The translations under genes were made by a program, and so were the position numbers. Shown here piece after piece: positions 53,156 to 63,705 of a DNA stretch of 64,000 bases; position 1 is the stretch's first letter; each line of letters begins with the position of its first letter. Source of the stretch: Pseudomonas azadiae (GTDB taxonomy: Bacteria; Pseudomonadota; Gammaproteobacteria; Pseudomonadales; Pseudomonadaceae); contig NZ_JAHSTY010000001.1 in the NCBI RefSeq assembly GCF_019145355.1, positions 1,178,001 through 1,242,000 on the forward strand, written 5' to 3'. Below the pieces are notes generated by a model, which was given only the letters and a program-made list of their open reading frames with translations, was not told the DNA's origin and did no database searches.

Positions 53156-55531
53156 TTAGGCGGACGCTTGGCCTTCCGCCAGGAAGAACCAGGTTTCCAG
53201 CACGGAATCGGGGTTCAGCGAGACGCTTTCGATGCCCTGTTCCATCAGCCATTTGGCCAGGTCCGGGTGATCGGAAGGGCCTTGGCCGCAGATACCGATG
53301 TACTTGCCGGCCTTGTTACAGGCCTGGATCGCGTTGGCCAGGAGCTTCTTGACCGCAGGATTTCGCTCATCGAACAGGTGCGCGATGATCCCCGAATCAC
53401 GGTCCAGGCCCAGGGTCAGCTGGGTCAGGTCGTTGGAGCCGATGGAGAAACCGTCGAAGAACTCCAGGAATTCTTCGGCCAGGATCGCGTTGGACGGCAA
53501 TTCGCACATCATGATGACGCGCAGGCCGTTTTCGCCACGGGACAGGCCGTTTTCCGCCAGCAGGTCGACGACCTGGCTCGCTTCGCCCAGGGTGCGCACG
53601 AACGGCACCATGATCTCGACGTTGGTCAGGCCCATCTCGTTGCGCACGCGCTTGAGGGCGCGGCACTCGAGCTCGAAGCAGTCACGGAACGCTTCGCTGA
53701 TGTAGCGCGAGGCGCCACGGAAGCCCAGCATCGGGTTTTCTTCTTCCGGCTCGTAGAGCTTGCCGCCGATCAGGTTGGCGTATTCGTTGGACTTGAAGTC
53801 CGACAGGCGCACGATGACCTTTTTCGGGTAGAACGCCGCCGCCAGGGTGCTGATGCCTTCCACCAGCTTCTCGACATAGAAGCCCACCGGGTCGTTGTAG
53901 CCGGCGATGCGCTTGTCGACGCTTTCCTTGATGTCCGGCGGCAGGCCGTCGTAGTTCAACAGGGCTTTGGGGTGCACGCCGATCATGCGGTTGATGATGA
54001 ACTCCAGGCGGGCCAGGCCCACGCCGGCGTTCGGCAACTGTGCGAAGTCAAAGGCGCGGTCCGGGTTGCCGACGTTCATCATGATCTTGAACGGCAGGTC
54101 GGGCATGGCGTCGATGGAGTTTTGCTTGATATCGAAGCCCAGCTCACCCTCAAAGATGAAACCGGTGTCGCCTTCGGCGCAGGACACCGTCACGCCCTGG
54201 CCATCCTTGAGCAACTGGGTGGCGTTGCCGCAGCCCACTACCGCGGGAATCCCCAGTTCACGGGCGATGATCGCCGCGTGGCAGGTACGCCCGCCACGGT
54301 TGGTGACGATGGCGCTGGCGCGTTTCATCACCGGCTCCCAGTCCGGGTCGGTCATGTCGGACACCAGGACGTCGCCTGGCTGGACTTTGTCCATTTCCGA
54401 CACGTCCTTGATGATCCGCACCTTGCCGGCGCCGATGCGCTGGCCGATGGCACGGCCTTCCACCAGCACGGTACCGGTTTCCTTGAGCAGGTAGCGTTCC
54501 ATGACGTTGGCCGAGGTGCGGCTCTTAACCGTCTCGGGACGGGCCTGCACGATGTACAGCTTGCCGTCGTCGCCGTCCTTGGCCCATTCGATGTCCATCG
54601 GGCACTGGTAGTGCTTTTCGATGATCATCGCTTGCTTGGCCAGTTCGCTGACTTCCGCGTCGCTCAGGCAGAAACGCGCGCGCTCGGCTTTGTCGACTTC
54701 AACGGTCTTGACCGAACGACCGGCCTTGGCCTCGTCGCCGTAGATCATCTTGATCGCCTTGCTGCCCAGGTTGCGGCGCAGGATGGCCGGGCGCCCGGCT
54801 TCGAGGGTGTGCTTGTGGACGTAGAATTCGTCCGGGTTGACCGCGCCTTGTACGACGGTTTCGCCCAGGCCGTAGGCGCCGGTGATGAACACCACGTCAC
54901 GGAAGCCCGATTCGGTGTCGAGGGTGAACATCACGCCGGCGGTGCCGGTTTCCGAACGCACCATGCGCTGCACGCCGGCAGACAGGGCCACCAGCTTGTG
55001 GTCGAAACCTTGGTGTACGCGGTAGGAAATGGCGCGGTCGTTGAACAGCGAGGCGAACACTTCCTTGGCCGCGCGGATCACGTTTTCCACGCCGCGGATG
55101 TTCAGGAAGGTTTCCTGCTGGCCGGCGAAGGAGGCGTCGGGCAGGTCTTCGGCGGTGGCCGAGGAGCGTACGGCGACCGCCATGTCCGGGTTGCCCGCCG
55201 ACAGGGTAGCGAAGGCGGTACGGATTTCTTCGTTGAGCTTTTCGGGGAACTCGGCTTCCATGATCCATTGACGGATCTGGGCGCCGGTCTTGGCCAGGGC
55301 ATTGACGTCATCGACGTCCAGGGCATCCAGCGCAGCGTGGATCTGGTTGTTGAGGCCGCTCAGCTCGAGGAAGTCACGGTAAGCCTGGGCCGTGGTGGCG
55401 AAACCACCGGGCACCGACACACCAGCGCCTGCAAGATTACTGATCATCTCGCCGAGGGATGCGTTCTTGCCCCCTACGTGCTCTACATCATGGACGCCGA
55501 GCTTATCGAGGGAAACTACGTACTCTACCAA
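53156..55531 (-). CDS. ppsA: phosphoenolpyruvate synthase
   Basis: 791 residues. The N-terminal ATP-grasp domain ([20 protein letters not shown]) is followed by the swivelling phosphohistidine domain ([20 protein letters not shown], catalytic His) and the PEP/pyruvate barrel ([20 protein letters not shown]; the CGQGPSD segment near the end). It converts pyruvate to PEP with ATP for gluconeogenesis. It is divergent from ppsR, which controls its activity. Confidence 0.98.
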
Positions 55532-55709
55532 GGTGATCTCTCCACTTTCTGTGTTGGAAAAGCTCAGGACGCCGGCTGCTCAGTAGGAGCTTACGCCAGC
55601 GCTTGTGGCCTGGACCTGGAAAATAAGTGAGAATGCGGCCCACTGCGGGACGGCAAAATCGCGCCTATCATATCCAAGATTCGCCATCAGCTTAAGGCCC
55701 AGGGCTCAA

Positions 55710-56528
55710 ATGAAACGATCTGCTTTCTTTATCTCCGACGGCACCGGCATCACGGCCGAAACACTGGGTCAAAGCCTGCTCGCGCAGTTCGAAAACATTA
55801 CCTTCGCCAAATTCACGCGGCCCTATATCGACAGCGTGGATAAAGCGCGGGCCATGGTACAACAAATCAATCTGGCGGCCGAAAAAGACGGCTTTCGGCC
55901 GATCATTTTCGACACCATCGTCAACCAGGACATTCGTGAGATTCTCGCAACGTCGAATGGTTTCATGATTGATATCTTCTCGACCTTCCTGGCACCGCTG
56001 GAGCAAGAGTTGAGCGAGCACTCCTCGTATTCGGTCGGAAAGTCCCATTCCATCGGCCACAACTCCAACTATATGGAGCGTATCGAGGCGGTGAACTTCG
56101 CCCTCGACAATGACGACGGCGCCCGCACCCATTACTACGACAAGGCCGACCTGATCCTGGTGGGCGTGTCCCGCTGCGGCAAGACCCCGACGTGCCTGTA
56201 CATGGCCATGCAATTCGGCATCCGTGCGGCCAACTACCCGCTGACCGAAGACGACATGGAGCACCTGACGCTGCCCGCCGCCCTGCGCGCGCACTCCAAC
56301 AAGCTGTTCGGCCTGACCATCGACCCGGACCGGCTGACCGCGATCCGCAACGAACGCAAGCCCAACAGCCGCTATTCCAGCTACGCGCAGTGTGAGTTCG
56401 AAGTGCGCGAAGTGGAAAACCTATTCCGTCGCGAGAATATTGCGCACATCAATTCCACGCATTTTTCGGTGGAAGAGATTTCGGCGAAGATTTTGGTGGA
56501 GAAAGGCGTGGAGCGTAGATTCAAGTAG
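55710..56528 (+). CDS. ppsR: PEP synthase regulatory kinase/pyrophosphorylase
   Basis: 272 residues from [20 protein letters not shown]; the longer open frame upstream overlaps the ppsA promoter region. The DUF299 P-loop is [15 protein letters not shown]. It inactivates PEP synthase by ADP-dependent threonine phosphorylation and reactivates it by phosphate-dependent pyrophosphorolysis. Divergent from its target ppsA. Confidence 0.96.
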
Positions 56529-56636: not shown

Positions 56637-58061
56637 TCACAGTTGAAACCGCCCCCCGCCCTGCCCCAGCGCCGTCGCCAATGCATCAAAACCCGCCCGC
56701 AATAGCTGATCATCCCCGGATGTATTGCAGATACTTGCCCGAATAAACTGCGGCACCGCCGTCTGCCCCACGGCAAACGCCTCGGCGGTGGCGATCAGGT
56801 AGTTATTCTGTTTGAGTTCCGCCTCGATTTCCGACGCGCGCCACGGTTCCGGCACTTCAATCCAGAAATGCGGGCTGTTGGGATGGGTGCGGTATGCCAG
56901 GCCGGCCAGCAGGTCGCGCACCAGGTCTTTGCGCCGGCTGATCTCGTTGATCTGCTGGCGCAGCAGGTATTGCGCCGTGCCGTTTTCGATCCATTGGGTG
57001 GCCAGTTCAAGGGTGACCGGCGTGGCCATCCAGCAGGTCGAACGCAAGGCCGCCGATATGCGGCTGACCAGCGCCGGTGGCGCATGCACATAGCCCACAC
57101 GCAGCCCGGCCGACACGGCCTTGCTCAGGCTGCTGATCAAAATCGTACGCTCGGGAGCGAAATGGCTGAGGGGCGGCGGTCGGTCTTCGACCAGCACACC
57201 GTGGGCTTCGTCTTCGAGAATCAGCAGGTTATGTTCGCGGCACACTTTGGCCAACGCTTCGCGACGCGCCACCGAAAGCACCGCCGTCGTCGGGTTCTGG
57301 ATGGTCGGCGTGCAATACAGCGCTGAAATGCGGTGATTGCGACAGACTTCGTCCAACGCACCCGGCAGCACACCTTCCTCGTCCATTTCCAGGCCGATCA
57401 GCCGGATGCCCAGCATGCGCGCCGCGGTAATCAAACCGGGATACGTCAGCTGTTCGGTGACTACGGTATCGCCAGCCCGCAACAGCGCCATCATCGAGCA
57501 CAGCAAACCGTGCTGTCCGCCATTGACGCAGATGACTTGCTCGGGGATCGGATGAAAATCACGCTGCACCAGCCATTGCGCGCCGGCTTCACGGTAGCGC
57601 GGCAGGCCGGCGTCCGGGGTGTAGGCGCTGATGTCCTGCAGGAACTTGGCGTTGCTCGACAGGGTTTGGAAGCTCTGGGCCAGAAACGCCGTCTCCTGCC
57701 CCGGAATGTGCATGTTGCGGCTCATGTCGAAGTACTGACGCGGCTCCTCGCTGAAGTTGCGAAAGCCTTCATCGCGCTGACGCTCCATCCCACGCTTGCG
57801 CACGAACGTGCCGTCACCCACCCGAGCCACAACCAGCCCCAAGCGTTCCAGCTCTCCGTAGGCCCGACTGATAGTGCCGATGGTGACGCCAAGATTGTCG
57901 GAAAGCACCCGATGGGGCGGCAGTTTTCGTCCCGGTTCAATCAAGCCTTCAAGGATGCCCCGTTCCATGACATCGGACAGGCGCTTGTACTTCACGCCCT
58001 GCCCGCTGGACAACCCCTCACGCATAATTGACACCATGTCAATATTTGTTTTGACAGTCAT
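56637..58061 (-). CDS. MocR-type PLP-dependent regulator
   Basis: 474 residues. A GntR winged helix (YKRLSDVMERGILEGLIEPG, GTISRAYGELERLGL) is fused to a fold-type I aminotransferase domain (GGQHGLLCSMMALLRAGD, CTPTIQNPTTAVLS, the PLP lysine in SSLSKAVSAGLRVGYV). MocR proteins sense PLP adducts or amino acids and regulate adjacent genes. It is divergent from the EamA-sulfur operon, so an amino acid made or exported by that operon is the likely signal. Confidence 0.93.
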   Translation of the reverse strand: MTVKTNIDMVSIMREGLSSGQGVKYKRLSDVMERGILEGLIEPGRKLPPHRVLSDNLGVTIGTISRAYGELERLGLVVARVGDGTFVRKRGMERQRDEGFRNFSEEPRQYFDMSRNMHIPGQETAFLAQSFQTLSSNAKFLQDISAYTPDAGLPRYREAGAQWLVQRDFHPIPEQVICVNGGQHGLLCSMMALLRAGDTVVTEQLTYPGLITAARMLGIRLIGLEMDEEGVLPGALDEVCRNHRISALYCTPTIQNPTTAVLSVARREALAKVCREHNLLILEDEAHGVLVEDRPPPLSHFAPERTILISSLSKAVSAGLRVGYVHAPPALVSRISAALRSTCWMATPVTLELATQWIENGTAQYLLRQQINEISRRKDLVRDLLAGLAYRTHPNSPHFWIEVPEPWRASEIEAELKQNNYLIATAEAFAVGQTAVPQFIRASICNTSGDDQLLRAGFDALATALGQGGGRFQL

Positions 58062-58089
58062 CTTTCGCCCTAATAGTGTGCTTTTACGG

Positions 58090-58140
58090 GTTCAATCGCC
58101 GAATTTTACAACTCATTACAAGCTCAATATAGAGTTCAAT
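58090..58140. promoter_or_regulatory. candidate MocR operator (direct repeats)
   Basis: GTTCAAT occurs at 58090-58096 and 58134-58140, with GCTCAAT at 58122-58128 in the same orientation, within the ~100-bp gap between the divergent MocR and EamA genes. MocR proteins usually bind direct repeats. Confidence 0.4.
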
Positions 58141-58164
58141 TTCGGCCCAGGGAAGCAATAAACG

Positions 58165-59115
58165 ATGCCAATGTCCGCCGTTATCGAAAATCCAGCCAAG
58201 ACAAAGTCCCAAAAACAGTGGTTGGCCGGGCTGGTCACCAGCCTGATGTTCCTGATCGTGTGCCTGAGCTGGGGCACCACCTGGCTCGGCATCAAGATCG
58301 CAGTGGAGAGCGTTCCACCCCTGACCTCCGCCGGTCTGCGCTTCCTGATCGCCTTCCCGCTGTTCCTGTGTTTTGCGATGGTGCGTCGCGAGCCGATCCT
58401 GTTCCCGCGTGAAAGTCGCTGGTTCTTCGTGTTCGTGACCCTGTCCTATTTCAGCGTTCCCTATTACCTGCTCAACTATGGCGAGATGCATGTCTCGTCC
58501 GGCCTCACCGCCCTGCTGTTCAGCTGCATGCCGGTATTCATCCTGATTTTTTCCGCGCTGTTCCTGCGCGAGCGCATCTACCTTTCCCAAGTGGTCGGTA
58601 TCGGCATCGGTTTCGGCAGTCTCTACATGATCATCAAGAGCCAGGGCCTGCACCTGGACCATGCCGAGTTCTTCGGCGTACTGGCGATCCTGACGGCCGC
58701 GATCATGCATGCCTTGTGCTACGTGATCACCAAGCAGAAAGGCAGCGCCATCAGCGTGATTACCTACAACACCCTGCCCATCGGCATTGCCGGCCTGATG
58801 CTGTTCGTCGCCGGCCTGTGGTTCGAAGCGCCCGCCTTCGCAGACATCACCCTGCGTTCCTGGAGCGCGCTGTTCTACCTGGGGCTGGTGGCCTCGGTGG
58901 GCGGGTTCATCGTGTATTTCATGCTGCTCAAGCGCTTGAGCCCGATCATCCTGTCGTTCGTGTTCATCATCTTCCCGGTGTTCGCGGTGATCATCGGCGC
59001 CTGGTACGAAGGCCTATCAATTTCCCGCGACCTGATGCTGTACTCGGCCATCCTGCTGGCCGGTTTTGCCATCACCAAGTTGCCGGTTGAAAAACTCCTG
59101 GCCAAGAAAAATTGA
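58165..59115 (+). CDS. EamA/DMT family exporter
   Basis: 316 residues, ten membrane segments with the two EamA repeats (LVTSLMFLIVCLSWGTTWLG and LAILTAAIMHALCYVITKQK). Family members such as YdeD/EamA export cysteine pathway metabolites. As the first gene of an operon with cysteine-type biosynthetic enzymes, export of cysteine, O-acetylserine or the operon product is the natural guess. It ends 35 bp before the next start. Confidence 0.9.
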   Translation: MPMSAVIENPAKTKSQKQWLAGLVTSLMFLIVCLSWGTTWLGIKIAVESVPPLTSAGLRFLIAFPLFLCFAMVRREPILFPRESRWFFVFVTLSYFSVPYYLLNYGEMHVSSGLTALLFSCMPVFILIFSALFLRERIYLSQVVGIGIGFGSLYMIIKSQGLHLDHAEFFGVLAILTAAIMHALCYVITKQKGSAISVITYNTLPIGIAGLMLFVAGLWFEAPAFADITLRSWSALFYLGLVASVGGFIVYFMLLKRLSPIILSFVFIIFPVFAVIIGAWYEGLSISRDLMLYSAILLAGFAITKLPVEKLLAKKN

Positions 59116-59150
59116 CCCTTCCGACTATCCAACAGCAACGCGAGAGAAAC

Positions 59151-61013
59151 ATGGACGTGCTCCGCCCTACCGCCCTGGAACAGATCTACGCCCACGCCAG
59201 CCGCAGCTATCCCGAGGAATGCTGTGGTTTCGTCTTCGCCGACGGCAGTGTGTACCTGGGCAGCAACATCCAGAATGAGCTGCACCGCAAGAACCCGCAG
59301 ATGTACCCGCGCAGCGCGGCCAACGGCTACACCTTCTCGGTGGCCGATACCCTGCTGCTGAACAAGGCGTTTCGCAGCGACAACCCGGTGGTGGTGATCT
59401 ACCACTCCCATCCGGATGTCGGTGCCTACTTCAGCGACGAAGACCAGGACAAGGCGCTGTTCATGGGCGAACCGATCTACCCCGTCAGCTACCTGGTCGT
59501 CGACGTCCGCCAGGGCCAGGCCCTCGGCGCCAAGCTGTTTGCCTGGGATGGCAAGCATTTCGCCCTTAAACCTTTCAACGACCTGCACACGGAGTTGTCC
59601 ATGAACGCTGTTTCTTTCCCCGACATTCTGGTTCGTGTGGCCAAGCTGCCGGAATCGACCCTCGAGGGCACCGGATCGACATTGCGCGAAGTCATTGAAA
59701 ACCTCTGCACCGGCCACCCGCAACTGCGCCCGCATCTGTTCCACGAAAACAACAACCAGCTCAAGGAACACTTCCTGTTTACCGCTGGCGAAGAGCTGGT
59801 CAATGCCGATGAACCATTGCCGGAAAACGCCCGGATCGAAGTGCTGCTGGCCACGTCCGGCGGCATGGATGTCGATAGCCTGAGCAATGAAGAAGTACAA
59901 CGTTATGTGCGCCACATCACCCTGCCGGGCGTCGGTCGCGCAGGCCAACTGAACCTGAAGAAAGCCAAGGTACTGATCATCGGCACCGGCGGCCTGGGTT
60001 CGCCCATCAGCCTGTACCTGGCCGCAGCCGGCATCGGCACCCTGGGCCTGGTGGACTTCGACGTGGTGGAAAGCAGCAACCTGCAACGCCAGATCGTGCA
60101 TGGCAACAGTACGTTGGGCATGCCCAAGGTCGAATCCGCCAAGCAGCGCCTGCAGGACCTCAACCGCCATATCCGGATCAACGCCCACGACACCGCCCTG
60201 ACGGCCGACAACGCCCTGGAGCTGGTGGGCGCCTACGACCTGGTGATCGACGGTACCGACAATTTCGACACCCGCTACCTCGTCAACGATGCCTGTGTGC
60301 AGCTGGGCAAGCCCTTGGTGTACGGCGCCATCTACCGCTTCGACGGGCAGATCAGCGTGCTCAACCATAAAGGTGGGCCGTGCTACCGCTGCCTGTTTCC
60401 CAGCGCGCCGCCCGCCGAACTGGCACCCAACTGCAGCGCCGGAGGCGTGATCGGCGTGTTGCCCGGTGTGGTCGGGATGATCCAGGCGACCGAGGCCATC
60501 AAGCTATTGATCGGCATCGGCGAACCGTTGTCCGGCCGCTTGATGCGTTTTGATGCGCTGGCCATGAAGTTCAGCGAGATCCGCTTCAAGCGTCGCGCCG
60601 ATTGCCCATGCTGTTCGCCGTCACGCCACACCCAACCCCAGGCGCCCGCCGTCTGCGCGGATGCCGTACCGGCCCAACCGTCCCTGGCCGCAGAACGCTA
60701 CATCAAGCCTCGGGTCCTCAAGCAACTGCTCGAACACCCAAGCAGTGCCGATGTGCTGCTGGACGTGCGCGACGCCAGCGAACTGGAGGTGTGCCAGTTG
60801 CCGGGCGTGGTGCATATCCCCCTGGCTGAATTGGACGGGCAACTCGACCGCCTCAGCCGGGACAATACTCACTACCTGATCTGCTACGCCGGGACCCGCG
60901 CCGAGCAAGCCGCCAGCACCTTGCTGGCCGCCGGCTTCGCCAACACCAAAGTCCTGCAGGGCGGCATGAAACATTGGGTTCGCGACGTCGAACCCGACAT
61001 GCCGTTGTATTGA
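59151..61013 (+). CDS. four-domain JAMM / ubiquitin-like / E1-ThiF / rhodanese protein
   Basis: 620 residues. Residues ~1-140: JAMM metalloprotease with a Glu in PEECCGF and H85-S-H87, S95, D98 in HSHPDVGAYFSDED. Residues ~152-238: MoaD/ThiS/CysO-like fold ending in Gly237-Gly238. Residues ~245-490: E1/ThiF/MoeB domain with GTGGLGSP (278), DGTDNFDTRYLVND (367), a Cys near 428 (PNCSAGG) and zinc pairs CYRC (411/414) and CPCC (485/488). Residues ~515-620: rhodanese with Cys578 in ICYAGTR. It should activate and sulfurate a carrier and use a JAMM domain to release the product. A GGAG site and ATG at 59601 could start a second, shorter product at the ubiquitin-like domain. Confidence 0.9.
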   Translation: MDVLRPTALEQIYAHASRSYPEECCGFVFADGSVYLGSNIQNELHRKNPQMYPRSAANGYTFSVADTLLLNKAFRSDNPVVVIYHSHPDVGAYFSDEDQDKALFMGEPIYPVSYLVVDVRQGQALGAKLFAWDGKHFALKPFNDLHTELSMNAVSFPDILVRVAKLPESTLEGTGSTLREVIENLCTGHPQLRPHLFHENNNQLKEHFLFTAGEELVNADEPLPENARIEVLLATSGGMDVDSLSNEEVQRYVRHITLPGVGRAGQLNLKKAKVLIIGTGGLGSPISLYLAAAGIGTLGLVDFDVVESSNLQRQIVHGNSTLGMPKVESAKQRLQDLNRHIRINAHDTALTADNALELVGAYDLVIDGTDNFDTRYLVNDACVQLGKPLVYGAIYRFDGQISVLNHKGGPCYRCLFPSAPPAELAPNCSAGGVIGVLPGVVGMIQATEAIKLLIGIGEPLSGRLMRFDALAMKFSEIRFKRRADCPCCSPSRHTQPQAPAVCADAVPAQPSLAAERYIKPRVLKQLLEHPSSADVLLDVRDASELEVCQLPGVVHIPLAELDGQLDRLSRDNTHYLICYAGTRAEQAASTLLAAGFANTKVLQGGMKHWVRDVEPDMPLY

Positions 61014-61029
61014 GCAGAGGATTTAAGTG

Positions 61030-61944
61030 ATGTTGCATAACTCCATTCTCGACGTGATCGGCCACACCCCCATCGTGCGCCTGGCACAGTTTTCCGAAGA
61101 CCTCGGCATCGAGGTCTACGCCAAGCTGGAATCACTCAACCCCGGCGGCAGCCACAAGGCGCGCATCGCCTTGGGCATGATCCTCGATGCCGAGCGCCGC
61201 GGCGTGCTGATCCGCGATTCCGGGCAAACCATCATCGAGCCCAGCGGCGGCAACACCGGCATTGGCCTGGTGATGGCTGGCAATGTGCTGGGCTACAAGG
61301 TCGTGCTGGTAATCCCCGACAACTACAGCCCGGAAAAACAGAAGTTGCTGCGCCTGTACGGCGCCAAGGTGGTGCTGTCGGACAGCCGCCTGGGCAATAA
61401 TTCCCACGGCGAAAAGTGCATGGAACTGCAGTTGGAAAACCCCAGCTACGTGATGCTCAACCAACAGCGCAACGGCGCCAACCCACAGACCCATCGCGAC
61501 ACCACCGCGCCGGAAATCCTGCGCGATTTCGGTGATTTGCGTGCTGACTACTTCGTCAGCGGCATCGGCACCGGCGGGCATATCACCGGCATCGGCGAAA
61601 CCCTCAAGGCCGCCTGGCCGCAACTGCGCGTGCTGGGCGTGGAGCCGGAAGAATGCGACCTGCTCAAAGACCAGCACGCGCCGCATCATATCCAGGGCCT
61701 GTCGATCGGCCTGATCCCGAGCATCCTCAATCTGGCGGTGATCGACGGCATGCTCAAGGTCTCACGCCAGGACTGCATCGACATGATGAAACGTATCATG
61801 CGCACCGACGCCATCAGCCTGGGTCTGTCTTCCGCCGCCAACATGGCGGCCATCGCCCAACTTGCCCCCGAACTGCCGCCCGAAACGGTGGTACTGACCC
61901 TGGTTTACGACAATGCCGACAGCTACCTGCCCAGTTTCGAATAA
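61030..61944 (+). CDS. cysteine synthase family protein (CysK/CysM-like)
   Basis: 304 residues from ATG 61030 (a GTG one codon earlier is possible), with AGAGGA upstream. Fold-type II PLP enzyme: Lys43 in NPGGSHKARIALG, substrate loop PSGGNTG (71-77) and phosphate cup GTGGH (180-184). It would join a sulfur donor to O-acetylserine or O-phosphoserine. Directly behind the thiocarboxylate-type carrier protein and before a serine acetyltransferase, it is placed like CysM in the mycobacterial CysO/Mec pathway. Confidence 0.93.
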   Translation: MLHNSILDVIGHTPIVRLAQFSEDLGIEVYAKLESLNPGGSHKARIALGMILDAERRGVLIRDSGQTIIEPSGGNTGIGLVMAGNVLGYKVVLVIPDNYSPEKQKLLRLYGAKVVLSDSRLGNNSHGEKCMELQLENPSYVMLNQQRNGANPQTHRDTTAPEILRDFGDLRADYFVSGIGTGGHITGIGETLKAAWPQLRVLGVEPEECDLLKDQHAPHHIQGLSIGLIPSILNLAVIDGMLKVSRQDCIDMMKRIMRTDAISLGLSSAANMAAIAQLAPELPPETVVLTLVYDNADSYLPSFE

Positions 61945-61981
61945 CCGGTTTTCCAACCATCCAGAACGCAGGGGGGCCTCC

Positions 61982-62974
61982 ATGGGCGGCTTTATCGACA
62001 TGCAACAGCTGCACGATGAGTTGCTGACCCACCTCATCAAGACCCTCACGCCCGAACAAATGAAACAGCTGGAACCGCACCTGGCATCGCTGATCCAGAA
62101 TGCCGCCCAGGCAGTGGCCGAGGACCTGATCGCCTATGCCTACCGCGATCCAGCCTCCCGCGGGCGCGGCGAACTGATCCTGGAGTCCTACGCCTCGTTC
62201 AAGGCGGTGCTGTATTACCGCCTGGCGCATCAGGTATGGCATTTTCCGGACCAGACCAACGGCGTGTTTTCCCGCATCGCCCTCAAGCTCAGCAACCAGG
62301 GCAAGGTGCTGTCCGGCGCCGAGATCCACCCGGCGGCGCGTATCGGTCGACGCTTCGTGCTCGATCACGGCTACGGCACGGTGATCGGCGAAACCTGCGA
62401 GATCGGCAACGACTGCTACATCCTCTGCGGCGTCACCCTGGGCGCCCGCGGCATCGCCAACAACCCCGATGGCAAGCGCCACCCGCGCCTGGGCAACAAC
62501 GTCGAGGTCGGCTCCGGTGCCCGCGTGCTGGGCTATGTGCTGATTGGCGACAACGTGTTTATCAGCCCCTCGTGCGTGATTACCCAGGACGTCCCCGCCG
62601 GCACCAAGGTGAAGGTGGTGAACCAGATCCAGCTGCAAAAAAATGACGAGTCGGACAGCAGCAATTACCTCGGTGCCTTCGCCCTGGACGAGCGGCTGCA
62701 CGTGGTCGGCGAGATCAATGCAAGCCACAAAGTCACAGTGCTGGACGCCGACTTCCACCCTCTGCAAGGGCTGATGCTGGAGCCGACGGCGAAAGAGCGT
62801 CACCACCTGCAATTTCGCCTGCACCGTGTCGAGTCGGGTCACCACTTGCCGCGCCTGCCGCTGAACCTGAAGGTCTGCGGCCCGGAATTTGAAATCACCC
62901 TGCTCTCCCCCCCTGGCTTGAGCGCAATGGTGCGGTCCCTGCTGCAAGCCAGCCCACTGATCGTCGGAGGTTGA
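61982..62974 (+). CDS. serine O-acetyltransferase-like protein with long C-terminal extension
   Basis: 330 residues from ATG 61982. The N-terminal helical part and left-handed beta-helix are those of CysE: GAEIHPAARIGRRFVLDHGY with Asp128-His129, VIGETCEIGNDCYILCGVTL, and GNNVEVGSGARVLGYVLIGD. It would acetylate serine to O-acetylserine. Normal CysE ends soon after the helix with a peptide that binds CysK. Here about 115 more residues follow (from ~215), of no family I recognise. The end of the gene carries the GGAGG ribosome site for alaX, two bases before its ATG. Confidence 0.9.
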   Translation: MGGFIDMQQLHDELLTHLIKTLTPEQMKQLEPHLASLIQNAAQAVAEDLIAYAYRDPASRGRGELILESYASFKAVLYYRLAHQVWHFPDQTNGVFSRIALKLSNQGKVLSGAEIHPAARIGRRFVLDHGYGTVIGETCEIGNDCYILCGVTLGARGIANNPDGKRHPRLGNNVEVGSGARVLGYVLIGDNVFISPSCVITQDVPAGTKVKVVNQIQLQKNDESDSSNYLGAFALDERLHVVGEINASHKVTVLDADFHPLQGLMLEPTAKERHHLQFRLHRVESGHHLPRLPLNLKVCGPEFEITLLSPPGLSAMVRSLLQASPLIVGG

Positions 62975-62976
62975 AC

Positions 62977-63705
62977 ATGTCTGTGCATACCATGGAAACC
63001 CTGGCGCTGTTCGACAGCGCGCCCTACCAGAATGCCTTCAACGCGCGGGTGATTGCCGTGAGCGAACACGGCGTTGCCCTGGAGCACACGCTGTTCTATC
63101 CCACCGGCGGCGGGCAACCGGGCGATACCGGGCACCTCACACTGGCCGACGGTACGCGGGTCGACGTGACCGGCACGGTGCGCGACCCGGTGCTGCGCTC
63201 GATCATCTGGCACCAGGTGGAACACTGCCCCGAGCAGTTGACAGCGGGCGTGCAAGTGGACGCCGGCCTCGACTGGGACCGGCGCTATCAACACATGAAA
63301 ATGCACACCTGCCTGCACCTGCTGTGCTCGATCATCGACGCGCCGGTCACGGGATGCAGCATCAGCGCCGACAAAGGCCGCCTGGATTTCGACCTGCCGG
63401 AAATGACCCTGGATAAAGACAGTATTACCCGCGACCTCAACGCGCTGATCGAACAGGCGCACGCGGTGAAAACCTTGTCGATGCCAGCGTCGGAGTACGC
63501 CACCTTGCTGCAGATCACCCGCACCCAGGCGGTGGCGCCGCCGGTGGTTCAAGGCTCGGTGCGGGTGATTGAAATCGCCGGCATTGATATCCAGCCGTGT
63601 GGCGGCACCCATGTGATCAATACGGAGGAAATCGGCCGGGTGTTCTGCGAGAAAATCGAGAAGAAGAGCAAGCATAACCGCCGGGTGATTTTGCGGTTTG
63701 AATGA
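62977..63705 (+). CDS. AlaX-type alanyl-tRNA editing hydrolase
   Basis: 242 residues from ATG 62977 with GGAGG upstream. It matches the free-standing AlaX-M editing domain: FYPTGGGQPGDTG, zinc ligands in HMKMHTCLHLL (HxxxH) and CGGTHV (CxxxH). Such proteins hydrolyse wrongly charged Ser- or Gly-tRNA(Ala). Its place at the end of the amino-acid operon suggests it removes a tRNA mischarged by the operon product or its precursor. Confidence 0.93.
   Translation: MSVHTMETLALFDSAPYQNAFNARVIAVSEHGVALEHTLFYPTGGGQPGDTGHLTLADGTRVDVTGTVRDPVLRSIIWHQVEHCPEQLTAGVQVDAGLDWDRRYQHMKMHTCLHLLCSIIDAPVTGCSISADKGRLDFDLPEMTLDKDSITRDLNALIEQAHAVKTLSMPASEYATLLQITRTQAVAPPVVQGSVRVIEIAGIDIQPCGGTHVINTEEIGRVFCEKIEKKSKHNRRVILRFE

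What the first reader, a model, noticed from the sequence alone, without database searches (positions are those of the whole stretch)
58165..63705. Self-contained ubiquitin-like sulfur-carrier operon: exporter, JAMM-UBL-E1-rhodanese, CysM-like, SAT, AlaX
Seen: one 620-residue protein carries four domains that normally act as separate proteins, JAMM (HSH..S..D), a MoaD/CysO-like fold ending in Gly-Gly, an E1/ThiF domain and a rhodanese with its Cys. It is followed by a cysteine-synthase paralogue, a serine acetyltransferase, AlaX, and preceded by an EamA exporter under a divergent MocR regulator. Known: in Mycobacterium, MoeZ (E1+rhodanese) sulfurates CysO, CysM adds it to O-phosphoserine and the JAMM protease Mec frees cysteine; in P. 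fluorescens, QbsC/D/E use the same logic for a siderophore. Fused JAB/ThiS/E1/rhodanese proteins have, as I recall, been noted in comparative genomics. Inference: this operon is a one-piece protein-thiocarboxylate route to cysteine or a cysteine-like amino acid, with export and tRNA proofreading for an amino acid that would otherwise be misincorporated.
Basis: partly seen in the sequence, partly recalled or inferred. Interest (0 to 1): 0.88.

Follow-up and report, generated by a model that had tools for sequence, protein, structure and literature searches.

The report
Self-processing sulfur-carrier operon in Pseudomonas
A compact Pseudomonas gene set appears to load sulfur onto a small ubiquitin-like protein and use it to build cysteine or a close relative, and that carrier is made as part of a larger protein from which a protease domain probably has to cut it free.

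Summary
Window 58165-63705 encodes an EamA exporter, a 620-residue JAMM-UBL-E1-rhodanese protein, a cysteine-synthase paralogue, a serine acetyltransferase with an extra beta domain, and AlaX, beside a divergent MocR regulator. In 89 related loci (at least 5 repeats, most of them close kin) the core order and the main catalytic residues are kept. The JAMM fusion is a local event; the constant unit is UBL-E1-rhodanese, with JAMM a separate gene in more distant relatives and, by published annotation, in P. aeruginosa (PA2100-PA2106).

New here: the UBL ends in a conserved SGG that lies inside the polypeptide, before a variable spacer and the E1. An E1 needs a free glycine, so the protein should be a precursor cut after GG. 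JAMM proteases make this cut elsewhere, and the only other Prok-JAB match in this genome is RadC. The fused gene also keeps the ancestral ribosome site and ATG of UBL-E1-rhodanese, so it probably makes two products.

Best reading: a CysO/CysM/Mec-like cysteine module run on O-acetylserine. The product is unproven: four cassette-specific synthase residues, the exporter and AlaX leave a non-standard amino acid possible. The core set was predicted in 2006: a variant, not a new kind.

The parts
56637..58061 (-). MocR-family (GntR + aminotransferase-like) regulator, divergent; corresponds in position to PA2100/MdrR2
   Evidence: Pfam/NCBIfam; beside EamA in 88 of 89 loci
58062..58164 (.). divergent intergenic region with TCAAT-type repeats (58089-58096, 58124-58128, 58134-58140), candidate MocR sites
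   Evidence: alignment of 13 regions (window and 12 chosen of the 89 loci); coordinates checked; function inferred only
58165..59115 (+). EamA/DMT-family exporter (316 aa)
   Evidence: Pfam EamA 2e-42; conserved
59151..61013 (+). JAMM-UBL-E1-rhodanese protein, 620 aa
59151..59600 (+). JAMM/MPN+ protease domain (residues 1-150), E23 H85 H87 S95 D98
   Evidence: Pfam; these five residues in 89 of 89 loci; sequence match to PDB 2kcq 7e-9
59591..59603 (+). retained internal ribosome site GGAG (59591-59594) and ATG (59601-59603) that would start a 470-aa UBL-E1-rhodanese product
   Evidence: GGAG + ATG in 64 of 64 intact fused loci; duplex energy -6.1 against -3.0 for the full-length start
59601..59864 (+). 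ThiS/MoaD/CysO-like ubiquitin-like domain ending ATSGG (residues 151-238)
   Evidence: ThiS hits in 18 of 47 members (37 with a UBL); SGG in 88 of 89 loci
59865..59879 (+). variable 5-residue spacer after GG; predicted JAMM cut between 59864 and 59865
   Evidence: no invariant residue 239-243; pLDDT under 50; cut site inferred
59880..60626 (+). MoeB/ThiF/Uba4-type E1 adenylation domain; C428 aligns with a Uba4 cysteine (recalled as its thioester cysteine)
   Evidence: PDB 1jw9, 6yub; C428 in 89 of 89 loci
60690..61010 (+). rhodanese domain, C578 in CYAGTR loop
   Evidence: Pfam; C578 in 89 of 89 loci
61030..61944 (+). O-acetylserine-sulfhydrylase-like PLP enzyme (CysK/CysM family paralogue), K43; cassette-specific H42, G73, Q146, H184 (a GTG start at 61027 is also possible)
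61982..62974 (+). serine acetyltransferase (330 aa) with C-terminal beta domain (about residues 224-322)
   Evidence: D56 D128 H129 R166 H167 in 89 of 89 loci
62977..63705 (+). AlaX-type trans-editing protein with zinc ligands H110 H114 C208 H212
   Evidence: ligands in 89 of 89 loci

Best explanation
It is a self-contained protein-thiocarboxylate module that turns serine into cysteine. Step 1 (inferred): translation gives the 620-aa protein and, from the retained internal start, a 470-aa UBL-E1-rhodanese. Step 2 (inferred, strong precedent): JAMM cuts after the internal Gly-Gly, giving a carrier with a free C-terminal glycine and a MoeZ-like E1-rhodanese enzyme. Step 3 (inferred from family): the E1 adenylates the glycine and the rhodanese cysteine delivers a sulfane sulfur, giving UBL-COSH. 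Step 4 (inferred): the operon's serine acetyltransferase makes O-acetylserine; the PLP enzyme makes aminoacrylate and adds it to UBL-COSH; the thioester rearranges to UBL-Cys. Step 5 (inferred): JAMM releases cysteine and frees the carrier. EamA may export surplus product, MocR controls the set, AlaX guards tRNA-Ala. It duplicates normal cysteine synthesis, so it probably serves stress or an unusual sulfur source.
For: Linked set with catalytic residues kept. GG conserved though internal: in 59 aligned proteins 4 of the last 5 UBL residues are invariant against 8 of the other 83 and 0 of the 5 spacer residues (Fisher p 0.001, sequences not independent). HvJAMM1 cuts a SAMP1-MoaE linear fusion exactly after the glycine and no cut is seen without GG (PMC4443979, passages); MoaX is cut Gly82|Ser83 (PMC4326299, passages); QbsD uncaps a GG carrier (PMC6006322, passages). 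The other Prok-JAB match in the genome is RadC and the other two ThiS matches lie in short frames of 89 and 121 aa. MoeZ sulfurates CysO, CysM adds the serine-derived part, Mec releases cysteine (PMC3227635, passages). P. aeruginosa without cysK and cysM regains growth late, and the authors suggest PA2104 and/or PA1061 (PMC12800425, passages). PA2100-PA2103 rise with N-acetylcysteine; PA2101-PA2104 and PA2106 stand at 2.2- to 4.3-fold in a table of genes induced by RpoH.
Against: No biochemistry on these proteins was found. The synthase differs from CysK and CysM at four positions near the active site, and its best PDB hit is O-ureidoserine synthase, though by a small margin (232 against 227 bits for a cysteine synthase). 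The genome already has CysE, CysK, CysM and MoeB. The P. aeruginosa double mutant is a cysteine auxotroph on solid medium, this operon notwithstanding. AlaX and export are not explained by a plain cysteine route. The wide conservation counts rest mostly on close relatives.
Confidence: 0.58

Rival explanations
1. Same carrier chemistry, but the product is not cysteine: a beta-substituted alanine or other thio amino acid made for export or as a building block, with AlaX protecting tRNA-Ala from it.
For: H42, G73, Q146, H184 in 89 of 89 synthases, where the genome's CysK and CysM have V, S, F, T; EamA exporter and AlaX in the set; in one gammaproteobacterial MAG the core cassette is followed by an NRPS gene with condensation and AMP-binding domains; canonical cysteine genes are present anyway.
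Against: A single NRPS neighbour, in a MAG with broken frames in the same operon; the flanks of the Pseudomonas cassettes were not examined for biosynthetic genes; SAT plus OASS fold plus carrier is enough for cysteine.
Confidence: 0.27
2. A redundant molybdopterin or thiamine E1 (database names say MoeB) whose neighbours are incidental.
For: Automatic names say MoeB and the protein scores 445 against a cut-off of 449 for a rhodanese-type MoeB model (NF006444); mycobacterial MoeZ serves MoaD as well as CysO.
Against: The genome has another MoeB-like E1 and two further ThiS-family proteins; linkage to synthase, SAT and AlaX kept in 89 of 89 loci.
Confidence: 0.04
3. A protein-modification (ubiquitin-like conjugation) system: UBL is attached to target proteins and removed by JAMM; synthase and SAT are separate.
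For: E1 keeps a cysteine aligned with Uba4's (C428); the archaeal SAMP/HvJAMM1 system conjugates as well.
Against: No E2-like gene among the operon genes (the genome was not searched for one); rhodanese cysteine kept in 89 of 89 loci; synthase and SAT always adjacent.
Confidence: 0.06
4. The internal GG is a relic: the UBL-E1 fusion is never cut and the UBL only regulates the E1.
For: No cleavage data were found for this family.
Against: SGG is conserved in a UBL that varies to about 50% identity, next to a spacer that varies in sequence and, in three loci, in length.
Confidence: 0.05

Closest known systems
MoeZ-CysO-CysM-Mec cysteine route of Mycobacterium
   Same: E1-rhodanese, CysO-like carrier, cysteine-synthase fold, JAMM; same logical steps
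   Different: Here the carrier is the N-terminal part of the E1-rhodanese polypeptide with internal GG; SAT and AlaX in the operon; CysK-like IQG motif suggests O-acetylserine
PA2100-PA2106 of P. aeruginosa PAO1; Iyer 2006 table row 4c
   Same: Same gene set by published annotation; row 4c names ThiS/MoaD, E1-rhodanese, JAB and cysteine synthase for P. aeruginosa
   Different: JAMM (PA2102) is a separate gene there; row 4c does not mention SAT, AlaX, EamA, MocR or a carrier fused to the E1. PAO1 proteins were not aligned here
Qbs (thioquinolobactin) and PDTC cassettes
   Same: GG carrier, E1-rhodanese and JAMM; QbsD exposes a capped GG
   Different: Described caps are one or two residues, not an enzyme; products are thiocarboxylate siderophores
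MoaX of M. tuberculosis and SAMP1-MoaE with HvJAMM1
   Same: Carrier followed in cis by a partner enzyme; cleavage after GG needed for function
   Different: Partner is MoaE, not the activating E1; no JAMM in cis

Membership tests
CysO/CysM/Mec-type protein-thiocarboxylate cysteine route | E1-rhodanese, UBL with GG, OASS-fold enzyme and JAMM encoded together | tested here: met
CysO/CysM/Mec-type protein-thiocarboxylate cysteine route | UBL with free C-terminal GG as encoded | tested here: not met
   GG is followed in frame by spacer and E1 in the intact loci; could be met after cleavage
CysO/CysM/Mec-type protein-thiocarboxylate cysteine route | thiocarboxylate on UBL and UBL-Cys intermediate | not testable with these tools
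   needs mass spectrometry
CysO/CysM/Mec-type protein-thiocarboxylate cysteine route | O-phosphoserine as acceptor (CysM) | tested here: inconclusive
   SAT in operon and IQG motif as in own CysK point to O-acetylserine; mycobacterial CysM was not compared
JAMM/MPN+ metalloprotease | E..HxH-x7-S-x2-D motif (recalled) | tested here: met
   89 of 89 loci
Canonical CysK or CysM | score over curated NCBIfam cut-off | tested here: not met
   292 against 351 (cysK), 223 against 394 (cysM); the genome's CysK and CysM pass on the matched stretch
Canonical CysE | score over curated NCBIfam cut-off | tested here: not met
   149 against 211; the genome's CysE passes on the matched stretch; catalytic residues kept nevertheless
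MoeB | score over curated NCBIfam cut-off | tested here: inconclusive
   Equivalog TIGR02355 236 against 377, NF006444 445 against 449, subfamily NF004281 passed; the stretch of the genome's other MoeB also misses TIGR02355 (284), so the test does not discriminate

The most novel reading that the evidence does not exclude
A sulfur-carrier polyprotein: the E1 that activates the carrier is made as the carrier's own C-terminal cap, and the JAMM that uncaps and recycles it is its N-terminal neighbour, so one gene plus a dedicated SAT and synthase form a complete serine-to-product machine; the altered synthase makes an exported non-standard sulfur amino acid.
Probability: 0.25. Interest if true: 0.78.

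Novelty: new variant of a known kind. Interest (0 to 1): 0.57.

Why it matters
It gives a concrete candidate for the unexplained residual cysteine synthesis of Pseudomonas, corrects proteins now named MoeB, and predicts a carrier whose maturation by its own operon's JAMM can be read on a gel. It would extend the capped-carrier idea from a one- or two-residue cap to a whole enzyme.

Tried and rejected
A meaningful C-terminal GG on the serine acetyltransferase: the window protein ends VGG, but only 38 of 85 long homologues examined end in GG, so not claimed.

A natural gene split exactly at GG: genome G544 matched only up to the UBL end, but that locus is a frame-broken copy lacking the second glycine (L120), not a split.

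First structure alignment A2 placed the stand-alone JAMMs wrongly; remade as A4. The fold comparison of the 620-mer was filled by E1 structures and that of the SAT by SAT and other acyltransferase structures, so JAMM, UBL, rhodanese and the SAT C-terminal domain were not tested by fold. No coordinates were available, so reach of the GG to either active site was not measured.

A first count of fused loci (73 of 80) was too loose, because open frames upstream by chance were counted; the counts replace it.

The order search around G001 covered only 3 genomes and found no second copy. A 2026 P. aeruginosa O-acetylserine sulfhydrylase paper (PMC12895370) does not mention PA2104 in its main text.

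Paper searches: in the listings and passages I saw there is no description of the SAT/AlaX/EamA linkage or of the internal-GG fusion. Most subscription papers are not held, and I read passages only, so this does not prove absence.
Full report
What is there. The window is Pseudomonas chromosome (closest named locus P. cedrina DSM 17516, 97-100% in the parts). A MocR regulator (minus strand) is followed by five plus-strand genes: EamA, a 620-aa JAMM-UBL-E1-rhodanese protein, a PLP synthase of the CysK/CysM family, a serine acetyltransferase and AlaX. The UBL is the weakest call in the single protein (ThiS E 0.001, below cut-off), but 18 of 47 members scanned (37 of them with a UBL) hit ThiS, best 3.5e-9, and in the window protein the match ends at the Gly-Gly.

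Conservation. I compared 80 named loci (the best 80 of 93) and 9 unnamed ones chosen from the genus and class searches. At least five of the nine repeat named loci, judged by equal contig length, so about 84 are distinct, and most are close relatives. All 89 have matches to JAMM, UBL, E1, rhodanese, synthase, SAT and AlaX in the same order; 88 also have MocR and EamA, the exception being a gammaproteobacterial MAG, L121. In 89 of 89: JAMM E23, H85, H87, S95, D98; E1 C428; rhodanese C578; synthase K43; SAT D128, H129, R166, H167; the AlaX zinc ligands. Not quite invariant among tested positions: UBL G238 (88 of 89) and E1 K326 (88, one R). The cassette is sporadic: 49 of 298 genomes of the genus, 25 of 248 of the family, 2 of 369 of the class, 6 of 398 of the phylum, all six in the genus; the window's genome is included in each.

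Fusion. JAMM and UBL-E1-rhodanese are one open frame in 68 of the 89 loci; JAMM is apart in 15 (one of these, L105, is a broken copy of the fused form); six have other broken or split frames. Fused loci carry names mostly of P. fluorescens-group species; P. alcaligenes, P. otitidis, Vreelandella, Verminephrobacter and two isolates labelled P. fluorescens (L106, L108) have JAMM apart. Among the 120 best database hits of 8000 scored, proteins of about 619 aa come from Pseudomonas wherever an organism is named, while relatives at about 60-80% identity are mostly 470-aa UBL-E1-rhodanese proteins. Stand-alone JAMM genes carry the same motif. So the constant unit is UBL-E1-rhodanese, and the JAMM fusion looks like a later, local event.

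The old start survives. In unfused loci the 470-aa protein mostly starts behind AAAGGAGTTTGGCT-like sites. In all 64 intact fused loci tested GGAG and ATG are still there, and the codons around them are among the most conserved of the JAMM-UBL stretch (the site's window is one of the top 11 of 231, and six of those eleven lie at the site). Its pairing energy with the ribosome is -6.1 against -3.0 for the full-length start; but 17% of 534 other in-frame ATGs score as well, so conservation and homology carry the argument, not the energy. I infer two products.

The internal Gly-Gly. In 59 aligned proteins the UBL ends A-[T/A]-S-G-G, followed by variable residues and then the E1. Four of the last five UBL residues are invariant against eight of the other 83 (Fisher p 0.001; the sequences are related, so p is indicative). 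Three loci (L097, L124, L125) have 6 extra residues in the spacer. The model gives the junction pLDDT under 50. E1 enzymes of this type act on a free C-terminal glycine, and fused carriers are predicted inactive until cut (PMC4326299, PMC4443979, passages). The precedent is direct: HvJAMM1 cuts a SAMP1-MoaE linear fusion exactly after the glycine and no cut is seen when GG is removed; MoaX is cut at Gly82 by an unidentified protease; QbsD uncaps a carrier. In this genome the other Prok-JAB match is RadC (other JAMM models were not searched) and the other two ThiS matches lie in short frames. I did not show that this JAMM makes the cut.

Which acceptor, which product. The operon has its own SAT, and the synthase keeps the IQG motif of the genome's CysK where its CysM has IRR, so O-acetylserine is the likely substrate. 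Yet H42, G73, Q146 and H184 are in 89 of 89 loci where the genome's CysK and CysM have V, S, F, T. These lie beside the PLP lysine, in the loop taken to bind the substrate carboxylate and in the PLP-phosphate loop; those roles are recalled from the family. They may mean a bulky protein nucleophile, or another product. In L121 the core set is followed by an NRPS gene with condensation and AMP-binding domains: one case, in a MAG with broken frames. CysE, CysK and CysM of the genome pass NCBIfam cut-offs on their matched stretches, and a second MoeB-type E1 passes the MoeB subfamily model, so the cassette is an addition.

Literature (passages only). Iyer 2006 listed for P. aeruginosa an operon with ThiS/MoaD, E1-rhodanese, JAB and cysteine synthase and suggested coupling to cysteine. 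The published annotation of PA2100-PA2106 matches this cassette; I did not align the PAO1 proteins. PA2100-PA2103 rise on N-acetylcysteine exposure, and PA2101-PA2104 and PA2106 stand at 2.2- to 4.3-fold in a table whose other members the text calls RpoH-induced. A 2025 study found late growth recovery of a cysK cysM double mutant and named PA2104 and/or PA1061 as candidates, though the mutant was auxotrophic on plates. A 2026 study noted PA2105 next to PA2104 and worked on PA3816 instead.

Verdict. Real, conserved, and so far only predicted. The overall logic is known from Mycobacterium; new are the precursor architecture, the two-product fusion and the dedicated SAT with AlaX. Shown: sequence, linkage, conservation. 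Inferred: cleavage, thiocarboxylate, product, export and editing roles.

Noticed in passing
window 62651-62971: C-terminal all-beta domain of about 100 residues on the serine acetyltransferase, beyond the part that matches solved SATs (residues 38-223); confident in the model (mostly pLDDT about 90). Its fold was not tested on its own.
   Followed up: partly
L121 13427-16375 (same gene L129 428-3376): NRPS-like gene (condensation, AMP-binding) directly after a distant copy of the cassette in a gammaproteobacterial MAG.
   Followed up: partly
L120, L168, L052, L094, L105, L111: Broken or partly deleted copies of the operon in some Pseudomonas and a Verminephrobacter, suggesting the cassette is dispensable; some may be assembly errors.
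   Followed up: partly
window 58089-58140: TCAAT-type motifs repeated three times between the MocR and EamA genes, partly kept in other loci; candidate regulator sites.
   Followed up: partly
L097, L124, L125: Six-residue insertion in the spacer shortly after the UBL Gly-Gly.
   Followed up: no
window 53156-56528: Two genes named by recall as PEP synthase and its regulatory protein adjoin the operon; the regulatory gene is found in the fetched flank of 72 of 89 loci (some contigs end too soon), so the copies near the window's share a site and others lie elsewhere.
   Followed up: partly
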